DNA of 63,415 bases from Pseudanabaena sp. lw0831 (GTDB lineage: Bacteria; Cyanobacteriota; Cyanobacteriia; Pseudanabaenales; Pseudanabaenaceae): contig NZ_BBJB01000112.1 of assembly GCF_016584665.1 (NCBI RefSeq), positions 1 to 63,415 on the forward strand, in the 5' to 3' direction. Both the position numbers and the translations under genes were made by a program. The notes under the pieces are model-generated. The model was not told the origin of the DNA. It searched no databases and worked only from the letters and a program-made list of their open reading frames with translations. Below, in pieces: positions 13,817 through 32,595 of this stretch. Within the stretch, counting starts at the first letter, position 1, and each line of letters begins with the position of its first letter.

Positions 13817-14031
13817 TTTATTCAGTTTTAGGATTACAAAATATCCCTTCGGCATCAGTAGCCACCATACCGTATGTGTAGCGGATAGCTTTAGGTCTAC
13901 TAATTTGCGCTTACCCCTTTCGGAAGTAATTGCCATTTCGGGGATACCAGACCCACACGGGGGGGAATAGGATGGGTCTGCTCATAATATATATCAATTC
14001 AAATATATTTGCAAGAGATTTCAAAAAAAAA
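13817..14031. other. Non-genic stretch between moaA terminators and the compound palindrome
   Basis: I see no supported gene here. Short reading frames exist on both strands but lack start signals and family-like composition. Confidence 0.6.
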
Positions 14032-24789: not shown

Positions 24790-26724
24790 TTATCTAGTTT
24801 TAGCAGCTAAACGATGTTGAATCTCTAAATACACCAGCAATGCATTCACATCCGCAGGATTAACTCCACCAATGCGGCTAGCCTGTCCAATTGTCATCGG
24901 ACGAATCTTGCTTAACTTCTCTCTCGACTCTTTAGAAAGGGTCTTGATCGCATTGTAATCAATGTCTGTCGGTAACTTGCGATCGCTATGTTTAGCAACC
25001 TCCTCGATCTGATGCTCTTGACGTTGGATATAGCCCACATACTTCACTTCAATTTCCGCAGCCAGACGTTCAAACCGATTCAAGTTAGGATCTGCTAAAC
25101 CATAGTGAATCAATTCCGCATAGTTAAACTTAGGACGACGCAATAAATCAGAAAGAGTGATTGCACCACGAATTGCTTCACCCGTTTCCGCTGTAATCAG
25201 TTGCCCAAGTTCATCCTTTTCCTTAACGCGAGTTCCATTTAAACGCTCCACTTCAGCATAAACGCGCTCCTGCTTGTCGCAGAACAGTTGCCAACGACGA
25301 TCATCGACTAATCCGATCTCACGTCCGATGGGAGTGAGGCGGCGATCGGCATTGTCCGATCTCAAAATCAACCGATACTCCGAACGACTCGTTAGCATTC
25401 GATAGGGTTCACGCAATTCCTTAGTACATAGATCGTCGATCAGCGTACCAATATAGCTGCTAGCACGAGGCAATACCACCATCTCTTTACCCTTCGCAAA
25501 TAGGGCAGCATTCATCCCCGCAATCACACCTTGCGCCGCCGCTTCTTCATAACCAGTGGTTCCATTAATCTGACCTGCACAAAATAGCCCTTCAATCAAC
25601 TTTGTCATTAAAGTGGGATAGCACTGAGTCGCAGGAATATAGTCATATTCAACTGCATAGGCAGCACGAAGCATATGACAATTTTCTAACCCAGGGAGAG
25701 TTCTCAACATTTGCAATTGAATATTTTCAGGCATTCCCGTTGAGAAGCCTTGAATATAAAGCTCAGGAATCGTCCGACCTTCTGGCTCGATAAAAATTTG
25801 ATGACTCTCTTTATCGGCAAAGCGAACAATTTTATCTTCGATGCTCGGACAATAGCGGGGACCTTTCGCATCGATAAAGCCACCATAAACTGGCGTGAGA
25901 TGCAGATTATCACGAATAATTTTATGGGTTTCGGTGGTAGTACGGGTTAAATAGCAATTCATCTGTTCCCGTTCCACCCATGCGCTTGGATCGAAGCTGA
26001 ACCAGTTATGCTCGGTATCCGAAGGTTGAACTTCCATTTTGCTATAGTCCACACTGCGGCGATCTACTCGCGCTGGTGTTCCTGTTTTGAGGCGATCGGT
26101 GACAAATCCCAAGGCATTGAGAGTTTCCGTAAGTCCCGCAACCGCAAATTCTCCAGCCCGACCTGCGGACATAGATCGATTGCCCACCCAGATTTTGCCA
26201 TTGAGAAATGTGCCAGTTGTCAAAATCACGGCTTTGCAAGCATAGCCAACTCCAAACTGGGTTTCGACCCCAATAATTCCTTGATTAGCATCTAGCAAAG
26301 TATTAATCACCGTTCCCTCACGCACAGAGAGATTTGGCTCATTCTCGACTACCGTTTTCATTTCGGCGGCATATTCGCGCTTGTCGGTTTGCGCTCGCAA
26401 TGCCCAAACGGCGGGGCCTCGCGAACTATTAAGAATCCGCTTTTGTAAATAAGTGCGATCGGTGATCTTGCCAATTTCGCCGCCGAGGGCATCGACTTCA
26501 TGGACGAGTTGTGATTTGGCAGGGCCACCAACGGCGGGGTTACAGGGTTGCCATGCAATGCGATCGAGGTTGAGGGTGAGGAGTAAGGTTTTGCAGCCCA
26601 TTCTTGCCGAGGCGAGGGCGGCTTCACAGCCTGCATGTCCTGCGCCAACGACAACCACCTCAAATTCATCAAGGAATTGTACTTGATTGGCTGAATTTAT
26701 TAAATTACTCTTTATCTCGCTCAT
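24790..26724 (-). CDS. mnmG: tRNA uridine-5-carboxymethylaminomethyl modification enzyme MnmG (GidA)
   Basis: FAD-dependent partner of MnmE that installs cmnm5 on the wobble uridine of several tRNAs. At 644 residues it has the family length. The FAD-binding [19 protein letters not shown] is near residue 26. Other family blocks are [15 protein letters not shown] (about 288), [20 protein letters not shown] (about 328) and [14 protein letters not shown] (about 395). The C-terminal helical domain ([17 protein letters not shown]) is complete. The start is ATG 26724. Confidence 0.96.
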
Positions 26725-26833
26725 TGCCTAACAGACCTGACCAACAAAACTGTATTTTAGCCCAAAATCAAAATGAATTCATTGATTTAAGATTGCGATA
26801 TGATTTAGGACAACTCAACCATTGCTCCAAGCC

Positions 26834-27289
26834 ATGCAGCCTCTTGTAGAAACACCACAATCTCTACCTAAACAACCGATCGCCACAAAAGCCATTGTCT
26901 GGGTTCTATTTTTGCTATGGACAATCTTACTTAGTGGAATTACTTGGGAAATCCAACACTCCTGTGCACCAATCATCGCTTGGAGCGACACATTACCCAC
27001 CAATTGCCATCCGCAAAAAGATAACAATACTGCTCAGAGATCGCTTATTCCCAATTGGTTGACACATAATGATCTCACTAGTTTTAAACCGCAAGATTCT
27101 AGCGTACTTGCTAGCCGCGATCGCCCAAATCGCGACATTATAAATCCCAATACCATCGGCGTTGTATCTGGCACAGCCGTAGCGATCGTTTCTGCTATAG
27201 CTGGAGCACCCGCGTTCCTCACAGTTGGCATCGGCGTAGCAATGTGGTTTTTCGTTAAATTTTTCATCAAAGCGGCAAGTGTCTCGTAA
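26834..27289 (+). CDS. Small membrane protein A of a putative export cassette
   Basis: I do not recognise a family. The 151-residue product has one membrane segment (IVWVLFLLWTILLSGI), then two cysteines 14 residues apart in a polar loop (SCAPII... NCHPQ), a polar linker and a C-terminal hydrophobic Gly/Ala/Val stretch (VVSGTAVAIVSAIAGAP, VGIGVAMWFFVKFFI). The next gene has the same plan, so the two may be paralogues. I start at ATG 26834, since the TTG at 26822 is weak. A fused ABC-2 exporter follows 0.5 kb downstream on the same strand. Confidence 0.6.
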   Translation: MQPLVETPQSLPKQPIATKAIVWVLFLLWTILLSGITWEIQHSCAPIIAWSDTLPTNCHPQKDNNTAQRSLIPNWLTHNDLTSFKPQDSSVLASRDRPNRDIINPNTIGVVSGTAVAIVSAIAGAPAFLTVGIGVAMWFFVKFFIKAASVS

Positions 27290-27328
27290 AGTGTAGGAGT
27301 TATCACTTCGACATCACGAGGTATATCT

Positions 27329-27775
27329 ATGCAGTCTTCCTCCAAACCGAGTACCAGCATTTCTGAAGCTAGTAAAGCTGTCCAGCCAACTCAACCCGCA
27401 CAAGTTAAAGCCACATCACCCGAGCTACAGGCAAAAGATGTCGCTGCGTCTGGTGATTCCCAAGGTACTTCCCTCCTTTCACAACTGTCTGCGCGTTGGG
27501 CGGCTCTGTCTGGCGATCGCCTCCTTGTCGCTGGGTTAATCGGCATACTGGTGCTGACCATGTTTTTGTTTGCAAACAAAGGAAGCAATAACTGCATCTT
27601 GAGTTTTAGTAGCTGCAATCCGATCGCACCAGTTGCTACCGTACCTGTAATCTTGGCTCTAGGAGCTAGCGCCGCCACCGTACTCGTGCTAACCACGGCG
27701 TTTGGAACTTCCGTGATGGTTGCGGTTGGGGCGGGATTTGTGGTTGGGTGGATCGTCAGCCAATTCATGCATTGA
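27329..27775 (+). CDS. Small membrane protein B of a putative export cassette
   Basis: A 148-residue product with no recognised family. A Ser/Gln/Pro-rich N-terminus (about 1-60) is followed by a membrane segment (LLVAGLIGILVLTMFLF), two cysteines (NNCILSFSSCNP) and a C-terminal Ala/Val/Gly-rich hydrophobic pair (VILALGASAATVLVLTTAF and VMVAVGAGFVVGWIV). The order membrane segment, Cys pair, Gly/Ala helix matches the preceding gene, although the sequences are diverged. It is 39 bp downstream of that gene and 45 bp upstream of the ABC gene. Confidence 0.6.
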   Translation: MQSSSKPSTSISEASKAVQPTQPAQVKATSPELQAKDVAASGDSQGTSLLSQLSARWAALSGDRLLVAGLIGILVLTMFLFANKGSNNCILSFSSCNPIAPVATVPVILALGASAATVLVLTTAFGTSVMVAVGAGFVVGWIVSQFMH

Positions 27776-27820
27776 TTCTGTAGTCCTTGACAATTCAGGC
27801 ACAGATTAGGCACAGAAATC

Positions 27821-29350
27821 ATGCATCTTATCGAACTTCAAAATGTTTCTAAACGCTTCGGGCAGAAATCCATTCTCCAAGAGATCAGTTTGACTGTTCG
27901 CCAAGGAGAATTTATCGTCCTGCGTGGTACGAATGGTGCGGGTAAAACAACCTTGCTCAACGTCATCCTCGGATTGTTACAGCCAGATATGGGGACAGCG
28001 ATGCTATTGGGGCGATCGCCACTCCTTCCATCGGCAAAGACGCGCGTAGGCGTGGTGTTACAGAAGGTGAGTCCACCCAAGAATCTTAAGGTTAAAGAGT
28101 TGATCGACCTCGTGCGTAGTTACTACCCCGATGCGCTTTCTACCGAAGAGATTCTCAATACGGTGAACTTAGCGGGAAAGCACAATGACTGGGCGGCAAA
28201 TCTATCAGGTGGACAAGAACAACGCCTGTTATTTGCCTTAGCCTTGGCTGGGAAGCCCGATCTGATTGTGTTAGACGAACCGACGCGCAATCTCGATCTA
28301 GAAGGTTATGCCGACTTTTGGAAGCAACTGCGCCTCTGTGTGTCCCAAGGCAAAACCGTTTTGATGGTGACGAACAATCAAGCCGACTGGAAAGAGTTAG
28401 TCAGCCTCACAACGCGAACAATTACTTTGGATAATGGTCGAATTCATGAAGCTCGGCATAGTGCGATCGCCAAACCGCCAACCACGCCCATCCCTGAGAG
28501 GAAACAAGTAGCGATGTCGAAAGGTGGTATCCCGTTGTTCTATTCCTCCTCAGATGCAAGTCTTGAGAGTCTGGCTCAGGCGACTAGCAATCCGCCAGCA
28601 GAGAATTCTCCAGTTTTATCCTTTGGGAATGACAGCATATTGCGAGGCTTCCTGCCGCAACTATGGGCGGAGTCATTACAACTATTGCGAACTCCTACCT
28701 ATGCAATCGGTATCTTGCTTTTTTCCAGTGCGATCGCGTTGTTCCCTCCAGATGAGCGATTGGGCATGTTAGGAGTGATTTTCTTTGCTGGACTGAGTTT
28801 GCTGACGATCGCCTTTGAGCGCACGGGCAAACGGGTTGCGGTCGAGCGGGTCGAGGGTTGGCTAAAACTGCTGCGCGTTACGCCTTTGCATCCCTTTGCT
28901 TATCTATCCGCGAAGGTGGTGATGTCGTTGGTGATGTCTGCGATGAGTCTACTGCTGATCTTGGGGCTTGGGGCTTGGAAACTTGGCATTGATCAGTCCT
29001 TGGCACAGCGATCGCTAGAATTTACAAGTTTGCTACTCGGCAGCATTCCATTTACAATATTTGGCTTGGCTTTAGGCTATCTAGTCAATCCCAAAAGTGT
29101 GGATTCCATTGCTGGCTTAGCAATTCCGATCGCACTGTTTACCTGTGGTTTACCTTTACCAGTTTCTCAGGTTGTCCAAGATGCGATCGCCTATTCGCCT
29201 TTCTATCACTATGGACAACTGGTACTGTGGTCAGCAGGACTGTCCAATGATGGCTATTTCTGGCTGCATGTGATTTGGTTGCTGTGGACGGGCTGTGCTT
29301 TTGTCTTCCTTGCCAATTGGGCATACCAACGCGATCGCACTATGGAGTAA
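27821..29350 (+). CDS. ABC-2 type exporter with ATPase and permease fused
   Basis: The 509-residue protein begins with a nucleotide-binding domain: Walker A RGTNGAGKTT (about 38), signature LSGGQEQRL (about 127) and Walker B LIVLDEPTRNLD (about 148). A low-complexity linker (about 210-275) leads to six hydrophobic segments (about 290-500) of the ABC-2 membrane type, including VERVEGWLKLLRVTPLHPF. This is usually two proteins; here they are fused, so a homodimer would form the transporter. ABC-2 exporters move lipids, glycans or peptides outward. Context with two small membrane proteins suggests they are its partners or cargo. Confidence 0.82.
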   Translation: MHLIELQNVSKRFGQKSILQEISLTVRQGEFIVLRGTNGAGKTTLLNVILGLLQPDMGTAMLLGRSPLLPSAKTRVGVVLQKVSPPKNLKVKELIDLVRSYYPDALSTEEILNTVNLAGKHNDWAANLSGGQEQRLLFALALAGKPDLIVLDEPTRNLDLEGYADFWKQLRLCVSQGKTVLMVTNNQADWKELVSLTTRTITLDNGRIHEARHSAIAKPPTTPIPERKQVAMSKGGIPLFYSSSDASLESLAQATSNPPAENSPVLSFGNDSILRGFLPQLWAESLQLLRTPTYAIGILLFSSAIALFPPDERLGMLGVIFFAGLSLLTIAFERTGKRVAVERVEGWLKLLRVTPLHPFAYLSAKVVMSLVMSAMSLLLILGLGAWKLGIDQSLAQRSLEFTSLLLGSIPFTIFGLALGYLVNPKSVDSIAGLAIPIALFTCGLPLPVSQVVQDAIAYSPFYHYGQLVLWSAGLSNDGYFWLHVIWLLWTGCAFVFLANWAYQRDRTME

Positions 29351-29442
29351 GGCAGGCAAATTTCTCACCACAATCTCTAGTACTTGTTTCTGTCGCGATA
29401 CTTCAGCCCACTAAATAATTGCGTAATAAATGAGTATGGGGG
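29351..29442. other. Non-genic start of the 29351-29733 gap
   Basis: No supported gene. With the MITE-like element and the A+T-rich stretch up to 29733, this makes a gap of about 380 bp without a credible coding region. Confidence 0.6.
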
Positions 29443-29575
29443 CACTGGTTCCGCACTATCAGATTGTTCGGCTAAAATCCTTGCTTGACAAGGGTTTTAG
29501 CCATTTTAAGGTCAATTGCCGAGACCTAGACACAAAAAGGGTTTCAGCGCTTTTTCTCATAGTGCGGAACCAGTG
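29443..29575. mobile_element. MITE-like element with 17-bp perfect terminal inverted repeats
   Basis: The 133-bp block begins with CACTGGTTCCGCACTAT (29443-29459) and ends with its exact complement (29559-29575). Inside is a second inverted motif (GGCTAAAATCC and GGGTTTTAGCC, 29469-29500). It has no transposase, so it would be mobilised in trans. No clear target-site duplication was found. The short frames inside it are not credible genes. Confidence 0.7.
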
Positions 29576-29733
29576 TCGGCTTCCAGAAAGACGATTTGCT
29601 TTTCTAAATCCATTGTGATGCATGATATTGTCATCAGTTTGTTTATCAATAGATATGAGTTTTGCTTTCAATTCTCATGAGTCTTCCAACAAATGTGATA
29701 CATTACCATATCTCTCCCATAGTGAAGTAATAT

Positions 29734-30075
29734 CTATTTACTAGGACGATTTATACGAATTAGTTGGCTGGCTAGATCTACTGTGTTAGTAATTGCCTCA
29801 TTAATTTGGGTAGCTAGTCTTTGTCTATTGAGGTCTTCTGTACACACGATAATACCTGCATGGTTAGGTTGTAAGTTATGCAGGCGAATGAAGTCACTTC
29901 GATTAATCGTTAACACAGCACGGTTGTCACTAATCGCAAAGGCTAATACGTCTTCATCGGGGATTTTTTGGTTGGCTTTTTCTTCTTCTTGGACTGTCAA
30001 AATGTCATGTCCTAGTTCGCGTAGTAGTTTGACGACAATTTTTGGAAATTGCTCATCAGCATAAAGACGTGCCAT
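29734..30075 (-). CDS. DUF5615 PIN-like toxin
   Basis: The 113-residue protein has the DUF5615 pattern: RLYADEQFPKIVVKLLRELG at the N-terminus with the first acidic residues, then DVLAFAISDNRAVLTINRSDF (about 43-63) with further acidic residues and HAGIIVCTED (about 72). These are PIN-like nucleases that act as toxins with a DUF433 antitoxin, as here. One base separates it from the antitoxin stop. It is the last module of the toxin-antitoxin array. Confidence 0.85.
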   Translation of the reverse strand: MARLYADEQFPKIVVKLLRELGHDILTVQEEEKANQKIPDEDVLAFAISDNRAVLTINRSDFIRLHNLQPNHAGIIVCTEDLNRQRLATQINEAITNTVDLASQLIRINRPSK

Positions 30076-30076
30076 T

Positions 30077-30403
30077 TTAAGCTGCCTCTTGTCTATGAAT
30101 GGCTGCTTCTATCTCATCAATGTGAGTTTCGGCGTAGCGCCATGCGTTTACTAGGTCTGTTGCGGAGAGTGTGGGATAGTCTTCGAGGATGTAGGCTTCG
30201 CTTGCGCCTTGGCGTTGGAGGCTTACTAGCAGCCATACGGGTATGCGCGTTTGTCGAATGCACGCATCGCTGCCCATGACTCTAGGATTTTTTTCGATGC
30301 CTTGCCATGTGTTGCTGAGGCTTTGTACTAGTATTTGGATTGCTTGAGATTTTTCTTCGGGGGTTAGGGCTAGTAGTTGTGGTTGTAGTTCTTTGAGTGT
30401 CAT
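30077..30403 (-). CDS. DUF433 antitoxin
   Basis: The 108-residue protein has the DUF433 HTH-like core: GSDACIRQTRIPVWLLVSLQ (about 44-63) and SEAYILEDYPTLSATDLVNA (about 68-87). DUF433 proteins neutralise the adjacent DUF5615 toxin and usually repress their own operon. ATG 30403 is preceded by AGGAGA. Its first codons (MTLKELQ) and leader are repeated in broken form at 31072-31117, where the match runs from the tail repeat into the start of the gene. Confidence 0.85.
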   Translation of the reverse strand: MTLKELQPQLLALTPEEKSQAIQILVQSLSNTWQGIEKNPRVMGSDACIRQTRIPVWLLVSLQRQGASEAYILEDYPTLSATDLVNAWRYAETHIDEIEAAIHRQEAA

Positions 30404-30414
30404 GTGATGTCTCC

Positions 30415-30491
30415 TTATTCTGTTAGTAAGTCTCTCAAATAATAAAAGCGATCGCTTTTTCCTCTATCACCTTTATCTCTTCCCAAATATT
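30415..30491 (-). repeat. Tail repeat copy 1 (re-encodes the nuclease gene C-terminus)
   Basis: Read on the minus strand it encodes EYLGRDKGDRGKSDRFYYL then RDLLTE and a TAA stop. This is the same peptide that ends the PD-(D/E)xK nuclease gene (GYLGR, DRFYFLRDLPI). It starts 5 bp after the stop of the nucleotidyltransferase gene and leads into the DUF433 ribosome-binding site. Confidence 0.88.
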
Positions 30492-30496
30492 CTAAT

Positions 30497-30934
30497 CTAG
30501 CGAAGATTCTCTAAATCTGCTAGGTCTTGGAGTCTGCCAGATGCTAATTTATTTTTTTTGAGATTATCAAGATCGATGAATTTAACGGCTATATCGTTAA
30601 GCATTATTTCTATTTTGGATGCATAACAGGTTTGAAAGTCAATGCCATCTGGACTGGTGATTAAGTCAATGCGGTTAGGGGGATAACCAAGTTGGATGAT
30701 TTGATGCGGTTCTTGAAAGTCTTGTGCAGTAAGTCCTAAGCTACCAAAGCCGAACTCAGTTAATGCTGTAATTATTTTTTGTGAATTTTCTTCGCTAATT
30801 TCTATCCAAATATCAATATCTTTGGTATATCGTGGATGTCCATGTACGGCGACTGCATAGCCGCCAATGACTAAATAACTAACTTGGTTGTCGTTTAATA
30901 ATTGTATAAATTCTTTGAAGTCTTGGTTGAGCAT
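30497..30934 (-). CDS. Nucleotidyltransferase toxin (MNT/AbiEii-like)
   Basis: The 145-residue protein has the polymerase-beta-type nucleotidyltransferase signature IGGYAVAVHGHPRYTKDIDI (about 23-42): GG, then D-x-D in KDIDIW, with the third acidic residue likely in NRIDLITS (about 87-94). Small proteins of this kind form toxin-antitoxin pairs (MNT/HEPN or AbiE-like) by modifying tRNA or a partner. Its start lies inside the upstream small gene, giving a 56-bp overlap in another frame. Confidence 0.8.
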   Translation of the reverse strand: MLNQDFKEFIQLLNDNQVSYLVIGGYAVAVHGHPRYTKDIDIWIEISEENSQKIITALTEFGFGSLGLTAQDFQEPHQIIQLGYPPNRIDLITSPDGIDFQTCYASKIEIMLNDIAVKFIDLDNLKKNKLASGRLQDLADLENLR

Positions 30935-31067
30935 TGTATTTGTATTGATGGTACTCTTGGCGAATTTGTTCGAGGGTTTCTAGTCGCTTTTGGGGTGTTT
31001 GTTGTTGCCAGTATTGAAAATCGCTGGTTTGTTGTTTGATGTTAGTTTTGGTGATTACTTTTTCCAT
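30879..31067 (-). CDS. Small partner of the nucleotidyltransferase (putative antitoxin)
   Basis: A 62-residue basic protein (MEKVITKTNIKQQ then WQQQTPQKRLETLEQIRQEY) of a type found directly upstream of such nucleotidyltransferases in cyanobacteria. The charged helix suits an antitoxin. I start at ATG 31067; the ATG at 31082 lies in the DUF433 remnant. Its last 56 bp are shared with the start of the nucleotidyltransferase gene. Confidence 0.65.
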   Translation of the reverse strand: MEKVITKTNIKQQTSDFQYWQQQTPQKRLETLEQIRQEYHQYKYNAQPRLQRIYTIIKRQPS

Positions 31068-31071
31068 TTTT

Positions 31072-31113
31072 TTATTTGTCATTAGTTGTATATTGCCGTT
31101 CTGTAAGTGTCAT
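31072..31113 (-). pseudogene. Remnant of a DUF433 gene start
   Basis: On the minus strand the frame reads M-T-L-T-E-R-Q-Y-T-T-N-D-K-stop. Its first ~27 bp align with the start of the intact DUF433 gene (MTLKELQPQL), and the leader before it also aligns. It shows that the junction of tail repeat and DUF433 start was copied here before another module took its place. Confidence 0.75.
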
Positions 31114-31114
31114 A

Positions 31115-31202
31115 TTATTCCTCTTCTTGTATTGATAAGTCTCTCAAACAATAAAAGCGAGCGCACTTTTTACCATCACTCTTAACTTTTTCCAAATATC
31201 TT
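31115..31202 (-). repeat. Tail repeat copy 2
   Basis: The minus strand encodes RYLEKVKSDGKKCARFYCL then RDLSIQEEE and TAA, the same C-terminal peptide as the other copies. It lies 62 bp downstream of the RelE-like gene. Confidence 0.85.
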
Positions 31203-31264
31203 AGGCTAATGAGAAGACGTGAATAGCGATCGCCTATTCATTCCCTTAATCACGTATCTATACC

Positions 31265-31528
31265 TTATATTTCGTAAGCCTTACTGCGGTGAGCGATCGC
31301 CACAACAAACACTTGTACTATTTCATCTTCGACTGAATAAATAATCCTATAGTCGCCAATGCGATAGCGATATAAACTTGAATATTCTCCCTTGAGTGCT
31401 TTGATGTTGGGGTGCGATCGCGGATCTTGTTCTAATTGTTGCAAGCATTTAGCAATCTTTTTCGCTAAAGCTTTATCTGCTTTAGCATAAACTTTTTGAG
31501 CATCAGGATGCAGTAAAATTTCATACAT
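31265..31528 (-). CDS. RelE/ParE family toxin
   Basis: The 87-residue protein has the RelE fold pattern: YEILLHPDAQKVYAKADKAL at the N-terminus, IKALKGEYSSLYRYRIGDYR in the middle and VFVVAIAHRSKAYEI at the end. These toxins cleave mRNA in the ribosome (RelE) or poison gyrase (ParE). The RYRIGDYRIIY and HRSK residues fit the RelE group. It overlaps its antitoxin by 8 bp. Confidence 0.88.
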   Translation of the reverse strand: MYEILLHPDAQKVYAKADKALAKKIAKCLQQLEQDPRSHPNIKALKGEYSSLYRYRIGDYRIIYSVEDEIVQVFVVAIAHRSKAYEI

Positions 31529-31793
31529 CAGAACGCACTGTTCTCCAATTTACATATTGGCTTTTAGGTGTTGTTTGATTCTGTTTGATGCGCTCTAATA
31601 GTCCTGAGATTGATAATAGCTCTTGAGTTGCTGCTTCGCTTTCAGCATTTGCTAAGAATGCTGCAAAATCGGCAACTACTTTTAATCTTTCTGGAGATAG
31701 CTGTTTAATTGATTCACTCAGTTGATTCTGTATTTCCATTACTGGTATCGTAGAGGGATTATCGACAATAGATATATCATTGGATGTATTCAT
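31521..31793 (-). CDS. Antitoxin of the RelE-like toxin
   Basis: The 90-residue protein has an acidic N-terminus and a helical middle (IKQLSPERLKVVADFAAFLA) as in many small cyanobacterial antitoxins paired with RelE-type toxins. The C-terminal NWRTVRSDV would contact the toxin. The family is inferred mainly from position and overlap with the toxin start. Confidence 0.75.
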   Translation of the reverse strand: MNTSNDISIVDNPSTIPVMEIQNQLSESIKQLSPERLKVVADFAAFLANAESEAATQELLSISGLLERIKQNQTTPKSQYVNWRTVRSDV

Positions 31794-31869
31794 TGTGATT
31801 GCTAGAGTTATTTTAAGTATTTACAGTTTAGCATTTAAGAAAATAGAATCAATTATTGCTATCAACAAT

Positions 31870-31948
31870 TCAGATCGGTAAGTCTCGTAGGTAGTAAAAG
31901 CGATCGCACTTTTTCCCATCCTCTTCTACTCTTCCCAAATATCCCGCC
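31870..31948 (-). repeat. Tail repeat copy 3
   Basis: The minus strand encodes GYLGRVEEDGKKCDRFYYL then RDLPI and TGA. It is the closest copy to the nuclease gene tail, keeps the same stop and shares TGAATTGT beyond it. It begins 9 bp after the PIN toxin stop. Confidence 0.9.
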
Positions 31949-31957
31949 TTTAGTATT

Positions 31958-32368
31958 TCACAATCTCTTTAGTAATTCTTGGACAGAGTATACAGGGATA
32001 GTTGAACTCACAAATCCTTTAGCATCACGGGTTACTATTGCGTCTAAATTTTGAGCGATCGCACTATAAATCTGGACAGCATCTTCAAAATCTGTTAAGC
32101 CAGATGCAAATGCTGCCTCTAAGACATTACGATTGACTGGACAAATGGTCATAGTGTCTAAAGTACTGGAAACTGCTTCTCTTGCAAGTTCTAGGCTACG
32201 GGTATGTTTACGCGCGATGTAGAAAATATCGGTCAGGGTTGTAGCGGTTACAAAGCCAATGATTTGTCCAGAGTCGATCGCGGCAAACAGTTCTTCTACA
32301 TCTTTTTTAAAAGGCTCTCTTTCTAACAAAAAATCTAGTAGAACATTTGTATCAATGAGAACTTTCAT
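31958..32368 (-). CDS. PIN-domain toxin (VapC-like)
   Basis: The 136-residue protein has PIN acidic residues in MKVLIDTNVLLDFLLERE, in ATTLTDIFYIARK (about 41), in LTDFEDAVQIYSA (about 91) and in IVTRDAKGF (about 110). It is an RNase toxin. Its start shares one base with the stop of the upstream antitoxin. This is the first module after the nuclease operon. Confidence 0.87.
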   Translation of the reverse strand: MKVLIDTNVLLDFLLEREPFKKDVEELFAAIDSGQIIGFVTATTLTDIFYIARKHTRSLELAREAVSSTLDTMTICPVNRNVLEAAFASGLTDFEDAVQIYSAIAQNLDAIVTRDAKGFVSSTIPVYSVQELLKRL

Positions 32369-32595
32369 TAGAGATATTTTTCCATGCGATGCTGTTCTAA
32401 CATTGATTCGACTTCGGCATCGGTTGGGGCTGGCTGGCTAGTTTTGAGTAAACCTTTCATGCGGCTGATTGCTTGCGATCGCTTAGGTGTTGAGATTGGA
32501 GTTTCTTGAATCGAGTCGATGATAGAGCGTACAAGTTCTAGGCGATCGCTTACAGGTAATTTACGCACCTGATTTTTAAGTTCTTGCAATAACAT
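32368..32595 (-). CDS. Antitoxin of the PIN toxin
   Basis: A 75-residue protein with a helical N-terminal half (VRKLPVSDRLELVRSIIDSI) typical of small antitoxins of cyanobacterial VapBC pairs, and an acidic C-terminus (TDAEVESMLEQHRMEKYL). It sits directly upstream of the PIN gene with a one-base overlap. Confidence 0.75.
   Translation of the reverse strand: MLLQELKNQVRKLPVSDRLELVRSIIDSIQETPISTPKRSQAISRMKGLLKTSQPAPTDAEVESMLEQHRMEKYL

What the first reader, a model, noticed from the sequence alone, without database searches (positions are those of the whole stretch)
26834..29350. Two related small membrane proteins plus a fused ABC-2 exporter
Both small proteins have one membrane helix, two cysteines and a Gly/Ala/Val-rich C-terminal hydrophobic part. 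They precede an ABC-2 transporter with its ATPase and permease in one chain, in a single direction with gaps of about 40 bp. The C-terminal helices resemble small hydrophobic exported peptides, but they could also be transporter subunits. I know of no named cassette like this.
Basis: inference. Interest (0 to 1): 0.55.

Follow-up and report, generated by a model that had tools for sequence, protein, structure and literature searches.

The report
Cyanobacterial exporter with paired hairpin proteins
Three neighbouring genes, an ATP-driven membrane exporter and two small, distantly related membrane proteins, form a cassette kept together in scattered cyanobacteria; no named family was found for the two small proteins, and what they move or do is not yet known.

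Summary
P1 (26834-27289), P2 (27329-27775) and a fused ATPase-permease ABC-2 exporter, P3 (27821-29350), lie on one strand, 39 and 45 bp apart. P1 and P2 have no significant Pfam or NCBIfam match. Correction: each appears to have three hydrophobic helices, an N-terminal helix, a cysteine-pair loop and a C-terminal two-helix hairpin. The P1 and P2 hairpins are homologous as profiles (hhalign 95%, score 40.6; controls 12.3 or less).

The trio is a real cassette. A P1 profile found 25 new loci, each with P2 and the exporter downstream. In all, 39 loci have the order P1-P2-P3 (P1 is interrupted in one), on chromosomes and two plasmids. Among matches examined, none has P1 or P2 without the exporter except two loci with decayed remnants; weak matches were not followed.

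P2 and the P1 N-terminus are most constrained; the P1 middle is swapped (Ig-like, repeat-like, proline-rich) and its hairpin is missing in 5 of 35. This favours exporter subunits over secreted peptides.

Best reading: an ABC-2 exporter with two dedicated paralogous membrane subunits, P1 also showing a variable outer arm. Substrate unknown. Some copies lie beside a divergent NB-ARC gene; one lies inside a DISARM defence locus.

The parts
26834..27289 (+). P1, 151-aa membrane protein: N-terminal helix, Cys-pair loop, variable middle, C-terminal hairpin
   Evidence: ORF; no significant family; relatives
26879..26962 (+). P1 N-terminal helix (aa 16-43), running into the conserved QHSC-x-P motif
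   Evidence: hydropathy, helix in low-confidence model, dN/dS 0.044-0.122
26963..27007 (+). P1 Cys44-x13-Cys58 loop
   Evidence: 31 of 35 P1 have at least two Cys here, 4 have none, no P1 has exactly one
27146..27283 (+). P1 C-terminal two-helix hairpin (aa 105-150), homologous to that of P2
27329..27775 (+). P2, 148-aa membrane protein; N-terminal 60 aa variable, the rest nearly invariant in the genus
27515..27586 (+). P2 first hydrophobic helix (about aa 63-86)
27593..27616 (+). P2 Cys89-x6-Cys96 loop
27638..27769 (+). P2 C-terminal two-helix hairpin (aa 104-147)
27821..29350 (+). P3, fused ABC-2 exporter (ATPase then permease)
27821..28450 (+). P3 nucleotide-binding domain; Walker A, Q-loop, signature and Walker B present
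28373..28375 (+). P3 H-loop position: Asn185 (AAC) where the switch histidine is usual
   Evidence: Asn in 19 of 39 P3 proteins
28622..29347 (+). P3 ABC-2 membrane domain

Best explanation
A three-gene ABC-2 exporter cassette. P3 probably works as a homodimer (inferred from its fused half-transporter layout). P1 and P2 are its dedicated membrane subunits: each is anchored by an N-terminal helix, has a disulfide-type loop on the outer face of the membrane, and returns into the membrane as a hairpin. The two hairpins share an ancestor and probably pair with each other or pack against the permease (inferred). P2 is the constant partner; P1 adds an arm outside the membrane whose length and fold are swapped between lineages and which could act as a spacer, sensor or docking arm. 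The complex is expected to move a hydrophobic or amphipathic substrate out of, or off, the membrane. Shown: gene order, co-conservation, hairpin homology, domain swapping, selection. Inferred: physical complex, topology, direction. Unknown: substrate.
For: P3 domains. Co-conservation: a P3 profile from Pseudanabaena alone found full-length relatives at 8 loci in 7 other genomes and each of those loci has P1 and P2 next door (P1 broken in G039). Profiles rebuilt with these loci give 9 strong P3 loci in 8 of 386 genomes and 9 strong P2 loci, the same ones, in 8 of 373; those loci built the profiles, so what is informative is that no strong solo copy appeared. The P1 N-terminal profile found 25 loci that had not built it, each with P2 and P3 in order. 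All 39 loci are in order on one strand. Loss as a block in Pseudanabaena: one deletion joins the P1 start to the P3 end in G027. Hairpin homology with controls; the P2 model also hits the P1 C-terminus in 10 loci. P1 keeps its N-terminal helix where the hairpin is missing, 5 of 35. Big_2 matches in 11 of 35 P1. Charge before the first helix exceeds that after it in 31 of 35 P1 (2 less, 2 equal) and 25 of 36 P2 (4 less, 7 equal), as expected for N-inside. Cys pairs are kept or lost together in P1. Median gaps 50 and 34 bp over 35 loci, P3 starts estimated.
Against: No physical or functional data. Models are of low confidence, so hairpin packing and topology are not shown. The permease family is broader: two Deinococcus and Thermus plasmid relatives examined, of 16 non-cyanobacterial records, have a separate ATPase and no P1 or P2 by profile, so P1 and P2 are not needed by the wider family. 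P2 charge bias is weaker. One P2 (L052) has a single Cys in the loop and four have none. The P1 hairpin is under weaker constraint than expected of an essential interface (dN/dS 0.287-0.376). P3 in the window lacks the switch histidine, which may alter ATPase activity, although a review reports wild-type-like transport for Asn at this place in the second site of ABCC1 (PMC7756269, passages read).
Confidence: 0.58

Rival explanations
1. P1 and P2 are the cargo: their C-terminal hairpins are a two-component, bacteriocin-like or pore-forming pair which P3 exports or inserts, with the N-terminal helix as a leader.
For: Two paralogous Gly/Ala/Val-rich hairpins of about 45 aa encoded together with an exporter; patchy distribution and plasmid carriage; one P2 protein has a weak match to the cyclic bacteriocin model CclA_1 (E 0.019).
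Against: The strongest constraint in P1 is on the N-terminal helix and motif, not the hairpin (dN/dS 0.044-0.122 against 0.287-0.376); 5 of 35 P1 lack the hairpin; P1 reaches 493 aa and 11 of 35 match Ig-like domains; the three genes include no peptidase or cyclase, though leader motifs were not searched for; the CclA_1 match is 1 of 36, among similarly weak hits to unrelated families. The strong constraint on the P2 hairpin is compatible with either reading.
Confidence: 0.17
2. A membrane module of conflict or defence systems: under control of STAND-type regulators it responds to phage or competitor damage, by export or by altering the membrane.
For: A specific NB-ARC gene lies divergent and upstream (254-1551 bp) in 6 of 39 loci, in three genera, with no full-length relative in 40 background windows, 0.8 Mb, from five carrier genomes, of which two have the gene pair. 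In G511 the trio lies inside a DISARM locus (DrmD, DrmMI, DrmA and DrmB by PADLOC). In G589 it follows a type IIG/DrmMI-like and a DpdE-like SNF2 gene; on the Aulosira plasmid it is divergent from a DrmD-like SNF2, a type IIG and a DruE-like gene. pNPM4 has a divergent NACHT gene.
Against: Neighbours (its output was partly cut) are mostly varied, many of them housekeeping by eye. Defence neighbours in 3 of 39 loci against 0 of 40 windows for the same query genes is not a firm difference and was noticed after the fact. Cargo genes often gather in such islands (recalled). The window's P1 and P2 match nothing in PADLOC at 1e-5.
Confidence: 0.15
3. An ordinary ABC-2 drug or lipid exporter operon in which the small proteins are loosely associated passengers.
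For: The permease has relatives outside cyanobacteria; P1 is variable.
Against: Same order in 39 loci over three deep clades, block loss in G027, and dN/dS of 0.017-0.053 in the C-terminal part of P2.
Confidence: 0.1

Closest known systems
ABC-2 exporters with separate ATPase and permease in Deinococcus and Thermus
   Same: Membrane domain is related (119.8 and 80.7 bits to the P3 profile).
   Different: ATPase separate; no P1 or P2 by profile; response-regulator genes nearby. Two records examined.
CcmAB haem exporter
   Same: The only, and insignificant, solved match of the membrane profile is CcmB (7f02, E 0.91); the ATPase scores 94.1 bits to CcmA.
   Different: Below the CcmA cut-off of 131.6 bits; no CcmB family in the Pfam hits.
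LanFEG lantibiotic immunity exporters
   Same: ABC-2 exporter that removes hydrophobic peptides from the membrane (recalled).
   Different: LanFEG has a separate ATPase with an E-loop and two different permeases (recalled); here one fused chain with an ordinary Q-loop glutamine.
Circular (class IId) bacteriocins
   Same: Hydrophobic Gly/Ala-rich helical segments encoded with an ABC exporter (recalled).
   Different: No significant family match; anchoring helix, Cys loop and variable outer region.

Membership tests
ABC-2 (type V) exporter | ABC ATPase with Walker A, signature, Walker B | tested here: met
ABC-2 (type V) exporter | ABC-2 membrane domain above curated cut-off | tested here: met
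   PF12698 34.2 bits against 31.6; PF01061 25.4 against 26.9, just below
ABC-2 (type V) exporter | Switch histidine in the H-loop (typical, not defining) | tested here: not met
   Asn in the window and in 19 of 39 P3; His in 17 by script plus 1 by eye, Trp in 1, Pro in 1
Circular bacteriocin (class IId) | Match of the hydrophobic part to bacteriocin models | tested here: not met
   1 of 36 P2 at E 0.019 to CclA_1; no bacteriocin model among the 25 of 37 families shown for 35 P1; none in NCBIfam for 36 P2
Circular bacteriocin (class IId) | Head-to-tail cyclised, secreted product | not testable with these tools
   needs mass spectrometry
CcmAB haem exporter | CcmA/CcmB family scores above cut-off | tested here: not met
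LanFEG immunity exporter | Separate ATPase with E-loop and two different permeases (recalled) | tested here: not met
   single fused chain; Q-loop Gln
DISARM component | Found with drm genes as a rule | tested here: not met
   inside a DISARM locus in 1 of 39 loci and beside related defence genes in 2 more
P1 and P2 as members of one family | Homologous C-terminal hairpin | tested here: met
   P2 model also hits the P1 C-terminus in 10 loci

The most novel reading that the evidence does not exclude
A self-contained antagonism or defence device of cyanobacteria: two paralogous hairpin proteins that assemble in the membrane as a gated pore or insertase whose state is set by a dedicated ABC-2 ATPase, switched on in some lineages through a STAND-type (NB-ARC) regulator, with P1's exchangeable arm choosing the target or sensing damage at the cell surface.
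Probability: 0.12. Interest if true: 0.8.

Novelty: new variant of a known kind. Interest (0 to 1): 0.52.

Why it matters
An ABC-2 exporter that keeps two mutually related small membrane proteins across three deep clades is unusual as far as I know (recalled). One of them swaps its outer arm among Ig-like, repeat-like and proline-rich forms, even within a single genus at a single locus. That gives a natural experiment on what accessory subunits do for this transporter class, and joins P1 and P2, which the two plasmid records call hypothetical, to an exporter. The maintained His-to-Asn change in about half of the ATPases is a further testable oddity.

Tried and rejected
Pairwise BLAST of P1 against P2 showed nothing; only profiles revealed the hairpin homology. 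Family searches gave only scattered weak hits for P1 and P2: Pfam (for P1, 25 of 37 families shown, chiefly Ig-like), NCBIfam (both window proteins, another the 36 P2), PADLOC, and for P2 PHROGs and solved structures. AlphaFold2 with three close sequences gave poor models, so no fold search was run. A viral-contig search with the P3 profile found no relative. tblastn of plasmids with the window P2 found nothing and with the pNPM4 P1 only its own record; the window P2 query missed both plasmid trios and the P1 query missed that of Aulosira, so these absences mean little. The scan of 26600-29800 gave one terminator-like site, inside P2 (shuffle mean 3.2), and 7 promoter-like sites (shuffle mean 4.1): no useful evidence. 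In 12 trio-less Pseudanabaena genomes blastn found only 29-43 bases next to mnmG in 7 and nothing in 5; the tblastx output was cut. My first reading of the SNF2 gene in G589 as DrmD was wrong: it scores best to DpdE. Paper searches (listings only, apart from passages of PMC7756269) listed nothing that by title and abstract start describes the cassette; the library is open-access only.

Limits and dropped rows. The phylum and G109-order genome sets were samples ('drawn evenly from a larger group') and only part of the candidates per genome was scored. Not followed: 5 weak P1 matches (E 2.1e-4 to 1.7e-3, each with stops), 4 weak P2 matches (E 1.4e-3 to 2.4e-3), 15 weak P2 matches (E 0.0066 to 0.047), and P3 matches below 60 bits apart from G228. 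Left out of the 36-row P2 and 35-row P1 sets: SR411, G012 and G450 as near copies, and for P1 also G039 (broken). One search misplaced the first helix of one P2 (L055), which has both cysteines, so P2 pairs are 31 of 36 rather than the script's 30.
Full report
What is there. Three genes lie on the + strand: P1 26834-27289 (151 aa), P2 27329-27775 (148 aa) and P3 27821-29350 (509 aa), with gaps of 39 and 45 bp. Upstream, 110 bp away and divergent, is mnmG/gidA. Near copies of the region belong to Pseudanabaena sp. SR411 and UWO311, so the window is most likely from a Pseudanabaena. P3 has an ABC ATPase domain followed by an ABC-2 membrane domain. P1 and P2 have no significant Pfam or NCBIfam match.

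Anatomy of the small proteins. Both begin with a tail and a hydrophobic helix, followed at once by a pair of cysteines, and both end in about 45 hydrophobic residues that low-confidence models read as two helices. Net charge is higher before the first helix than after it in 31 of 35 P1 (2 less, 2 equal) and 25 of 36 P2 (4 less, 7 equal), which places the cysteine loop outside the cytoplasm (inference). In P1, 31 of 35 have at least two cysteines there, 4 have none and no P1 has exactly one, as expected of a disulfide. In P2, 31 of 36 have the pair (one corrected by hand), four have none and one has one. The P1 N-terminal signature is a helix ending in a Q-H-S-C-x-P-type motif.

P1 and P2 are related. 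BLAST finds nothing between the two window proteins. Profiles of the last 50 residues of 30 P1 and 36 P2 proteins match with hhalign probability 95.2% and score 40.6 over 49 columns; the best of 100 column shuffles scored 12.06, reversed P1 12.3, reversed P2 11.7, the P1 N-terminus 11.5, and permease segments at most 11.9. A P2 model also hits the P1 C-terminus in 10 loci (E 0.01 or better). Five of 35 P1 lack the hairpin.

The cassette is conserved. Within the order, intact trios are in 4 of 38 genomes. G027 has a single deletion of about 2.2 kb that joins the start of P1 to the end of P3, and G019 keeps only a P1 remnant at the same place. Across the phylum, a P3 profile made from Pseudanabaena alone found, besides the window, full-length relatives at 8 loci in 7 genomes, each with P1 and P2 next door, P1 broken in G039. 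A P2 profile from Pseudanabaena alone reached only one of these (G109) and otherwise gave 15 weak matches that were not followed. Profiles rebuilt with the new loci gave 9 strong P3 loci in 8 of 386 genomes and the same 9 as strong P2 loci in 8 of 373; since those loci built the profiles, the point is that no strong solo copy appeared. A P1 N-terminal profile hit 34 of 340 genomes of the order of G109, 39 matches. The 34 matches with E 1.6e-4 or better were all examined: 8 were loci already known, 25 were new, and 33 of the 34 have P2 and P3 downstream in order and strand, 30 by the P2 profile and 3 (L142, L144, L148) by an ORF of the right place and layout. The other five, weaker and with stops, were not followed. 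Two plasmids, pNPM4 of Nostoc N6 and plasmid1 of Aulosira laxa NIES-50, carry the trio. With four Pseudanabaena this makes 39 loci, all in the order P1-P2-P3 on one strand, with each reading frame reaching a stop; in G039 the P1 frame is cut short by an insertion with a transposase-like ORF.

Three clades. A maximum-likelihood tree of the 39 P3 proteins separates clade I (window; by eye mostly low-complexity or proline-rich P1 middles), clade II (P1 mostly with Ig-like domains) and clade III (G168b, G224, G552c; P1 middles with repeat-like segments that recall leucine-rich variant repeats by eye). Clade II as a whole is not strongly supported (90/92), and joins with long branches (G552c, G491, G654, G538b, G422 among them) are unsure. 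Big_2 matches are found in 11 of 35 P1 at E up to 0.1, best 1e-45; one P1 matches the LRV model at E 0.023, which one the output does not say. Within one genus (g9), at one locus with the same flanks, P1 has four Ig-like stretches (G332), apparently one (G547) or none (G242, G103; by eye), while P2 hardly changes. G168, G538, G552 and G553 hold two or three cassettes of different clades, which suggests different jobs or substrates (inference).

Selection. In Pseudanabaena, against three relatives, dN/dS is 0.017-0.053 for the C-terminal part of P2 and 0.204-0.397 for its N-terminal part, 0.078-0.108 for the P3 membrane domain, 0.044-0.122 for the P1 helix and motif, 0.281-0.480 for the P1 middle and 0.287-0.376 for the P1 hairpin. 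So P2 and the N-terminal anchor of P1 are the constant core.

An unusual ATPase. The H-loop has Asn where His is usual in 19 of 39 P3, including the window; His is found in 17 by script and one more by eye, Trp and Pro in one each. The label is clustered on the tree (4 changes against 12.2 in shuffles). The other motifs are intact in the window. A review reports that Asn or Gln at this position of the second site of ABCC1 kept wild-type-like transport (PMC7756269, passages only), so the change need not inactivate P3.

Neighbours. Flanking genes mostly differ between genera (the output of 58 was partly cut). Two patterns recur. First, in 6 of 39 loci (three genera, two families) a divergent gene 254-1551 bp upstream encodes an NB-ARC protein of 455-470 aa, 32-98% identical among themselves; 40 evenly placed 20-kb windows (0.8 Mb) from five carrier genomes, two of which have this gene, hold no full-length relative, only partial matches in two windows. 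An HTH at its N-terminus is my reading; Pfam reports the NB-ARC part. Second, three loci border defence genes. In G511 the trio lies between DrmD/DrmMI and DrmA/DrmB, that is inside a DISARM locus, together with two XisH/XisI-like genes (recalled names). In G589 a type IIG/DrmMI-like gene and a DpdE-like SNF2 gene lie directly upstream. On the Aulosira plasmid the trio is divergent from a DrmD-like SNF2 gene, a type IIG gene and DruE-like and GajB-like genes. For the genes used as queries this is 3 of 39 against 0 of 40 background windows, not a firm enrichment and seen after the fact.

Interpretation. The facts fit an ABC-2 exporter with two dedicated, paralogous membrane subunits better than they fit exported peptides: constraint lies in P2 and the P1 anchor, the P1 hairpin is dispensable in some lineages, P1 can reach 493 aa, and the three genes include no peptidase; leader motifs were not searched for. 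The strong constraint on the P2 hairpin is compatible with either reading. The P3 membrane domain is related to separate ABC-2 permeases of Deinococcus and Thermus, in two plasmid records examined, that lack P1 and P2 by profile, so P1 and P2 look like an addition made in cyanobacteria or lost elsewhere. The wide profiles were run only on cyanobacteria and, for P3, viral contigs; plasmids were searched by less sensitive tblastn, and the one search over bacterial and archaeal genomes could see close relatives only, so the outer limit of the cassette is unknown.

Novelty. No library model searched here names P1 or P2, and the paper searches listed under Tried and rejected showed no account of the cassette. 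The transporter class is known; the two-subunit accessory pair with an exchangeable arm is, as far as these searches go, not described. I rate it a new variant of a known kind.

Noticed in passing
window 13848-13944 (-): c-di-GMP-I riboswitch match just above threshold (36.2 bits, cut-off 35) between a moaA-like gene (by eye) and the end of a permease-like gene; no ORF of 100 aa or more starts within 1 kb after it on its own strand, so it may be a relic or chance.
   Followed up: partly
window 29734-32595 (-): A run of small toxin-antitoxin-like genes right after the trio: DUF5615 and DUF433 (Pfam), then, by eye only, nucleotidyltransferase, RelE-like and PIN-like genes.
   Followed up: partly
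P3, window 28373-28375 and relatives: Maintained His-to-Asn change in the ATPase H-loop in 19 of 39 P3 proteins, clustered on the tree.
   Followed up: yes
L128, L131, L140, L147, L149, L150 upstream of P1: A divergent NB-ARC gene found at these loci and not, at full length, in the background windows; possible regulator.
   Followed up: partly
L152 1036-18027 (G511): The trio, with two XisH/XisI-like genes (by eye), lies inside a DISARM locus between drmD-drmMI and drmA-drmB.
   Followed up: partly
L135 1289-5209 and L139 5632-9827: Two genera of one family (G589, G607) share three genes directly downstream of P3 (37-39 bp): a 730-aa protein (dynamin-like by eye), a GTPase-like protein and a 320-aa protein; none in 0.8 Mb of background.
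   Followed up: partly
L060 8858-10026 (pNPM4): Downstream of the trio: an LRAT-domain protein and a small protein with Cys pairs, both with Gly/Ala-rich hydrophobic stretches.
   Followed up: no
L052 10328-11625 (G168): Two TerD-like stress genes (by eye) directly upstream of P1 on the same strand.
   Followed up: no
L054 6112-7748 (G039): P1 cut by an insertion with a transposase-like ORF; P2 and P3 frames intact.
   Followed up: no
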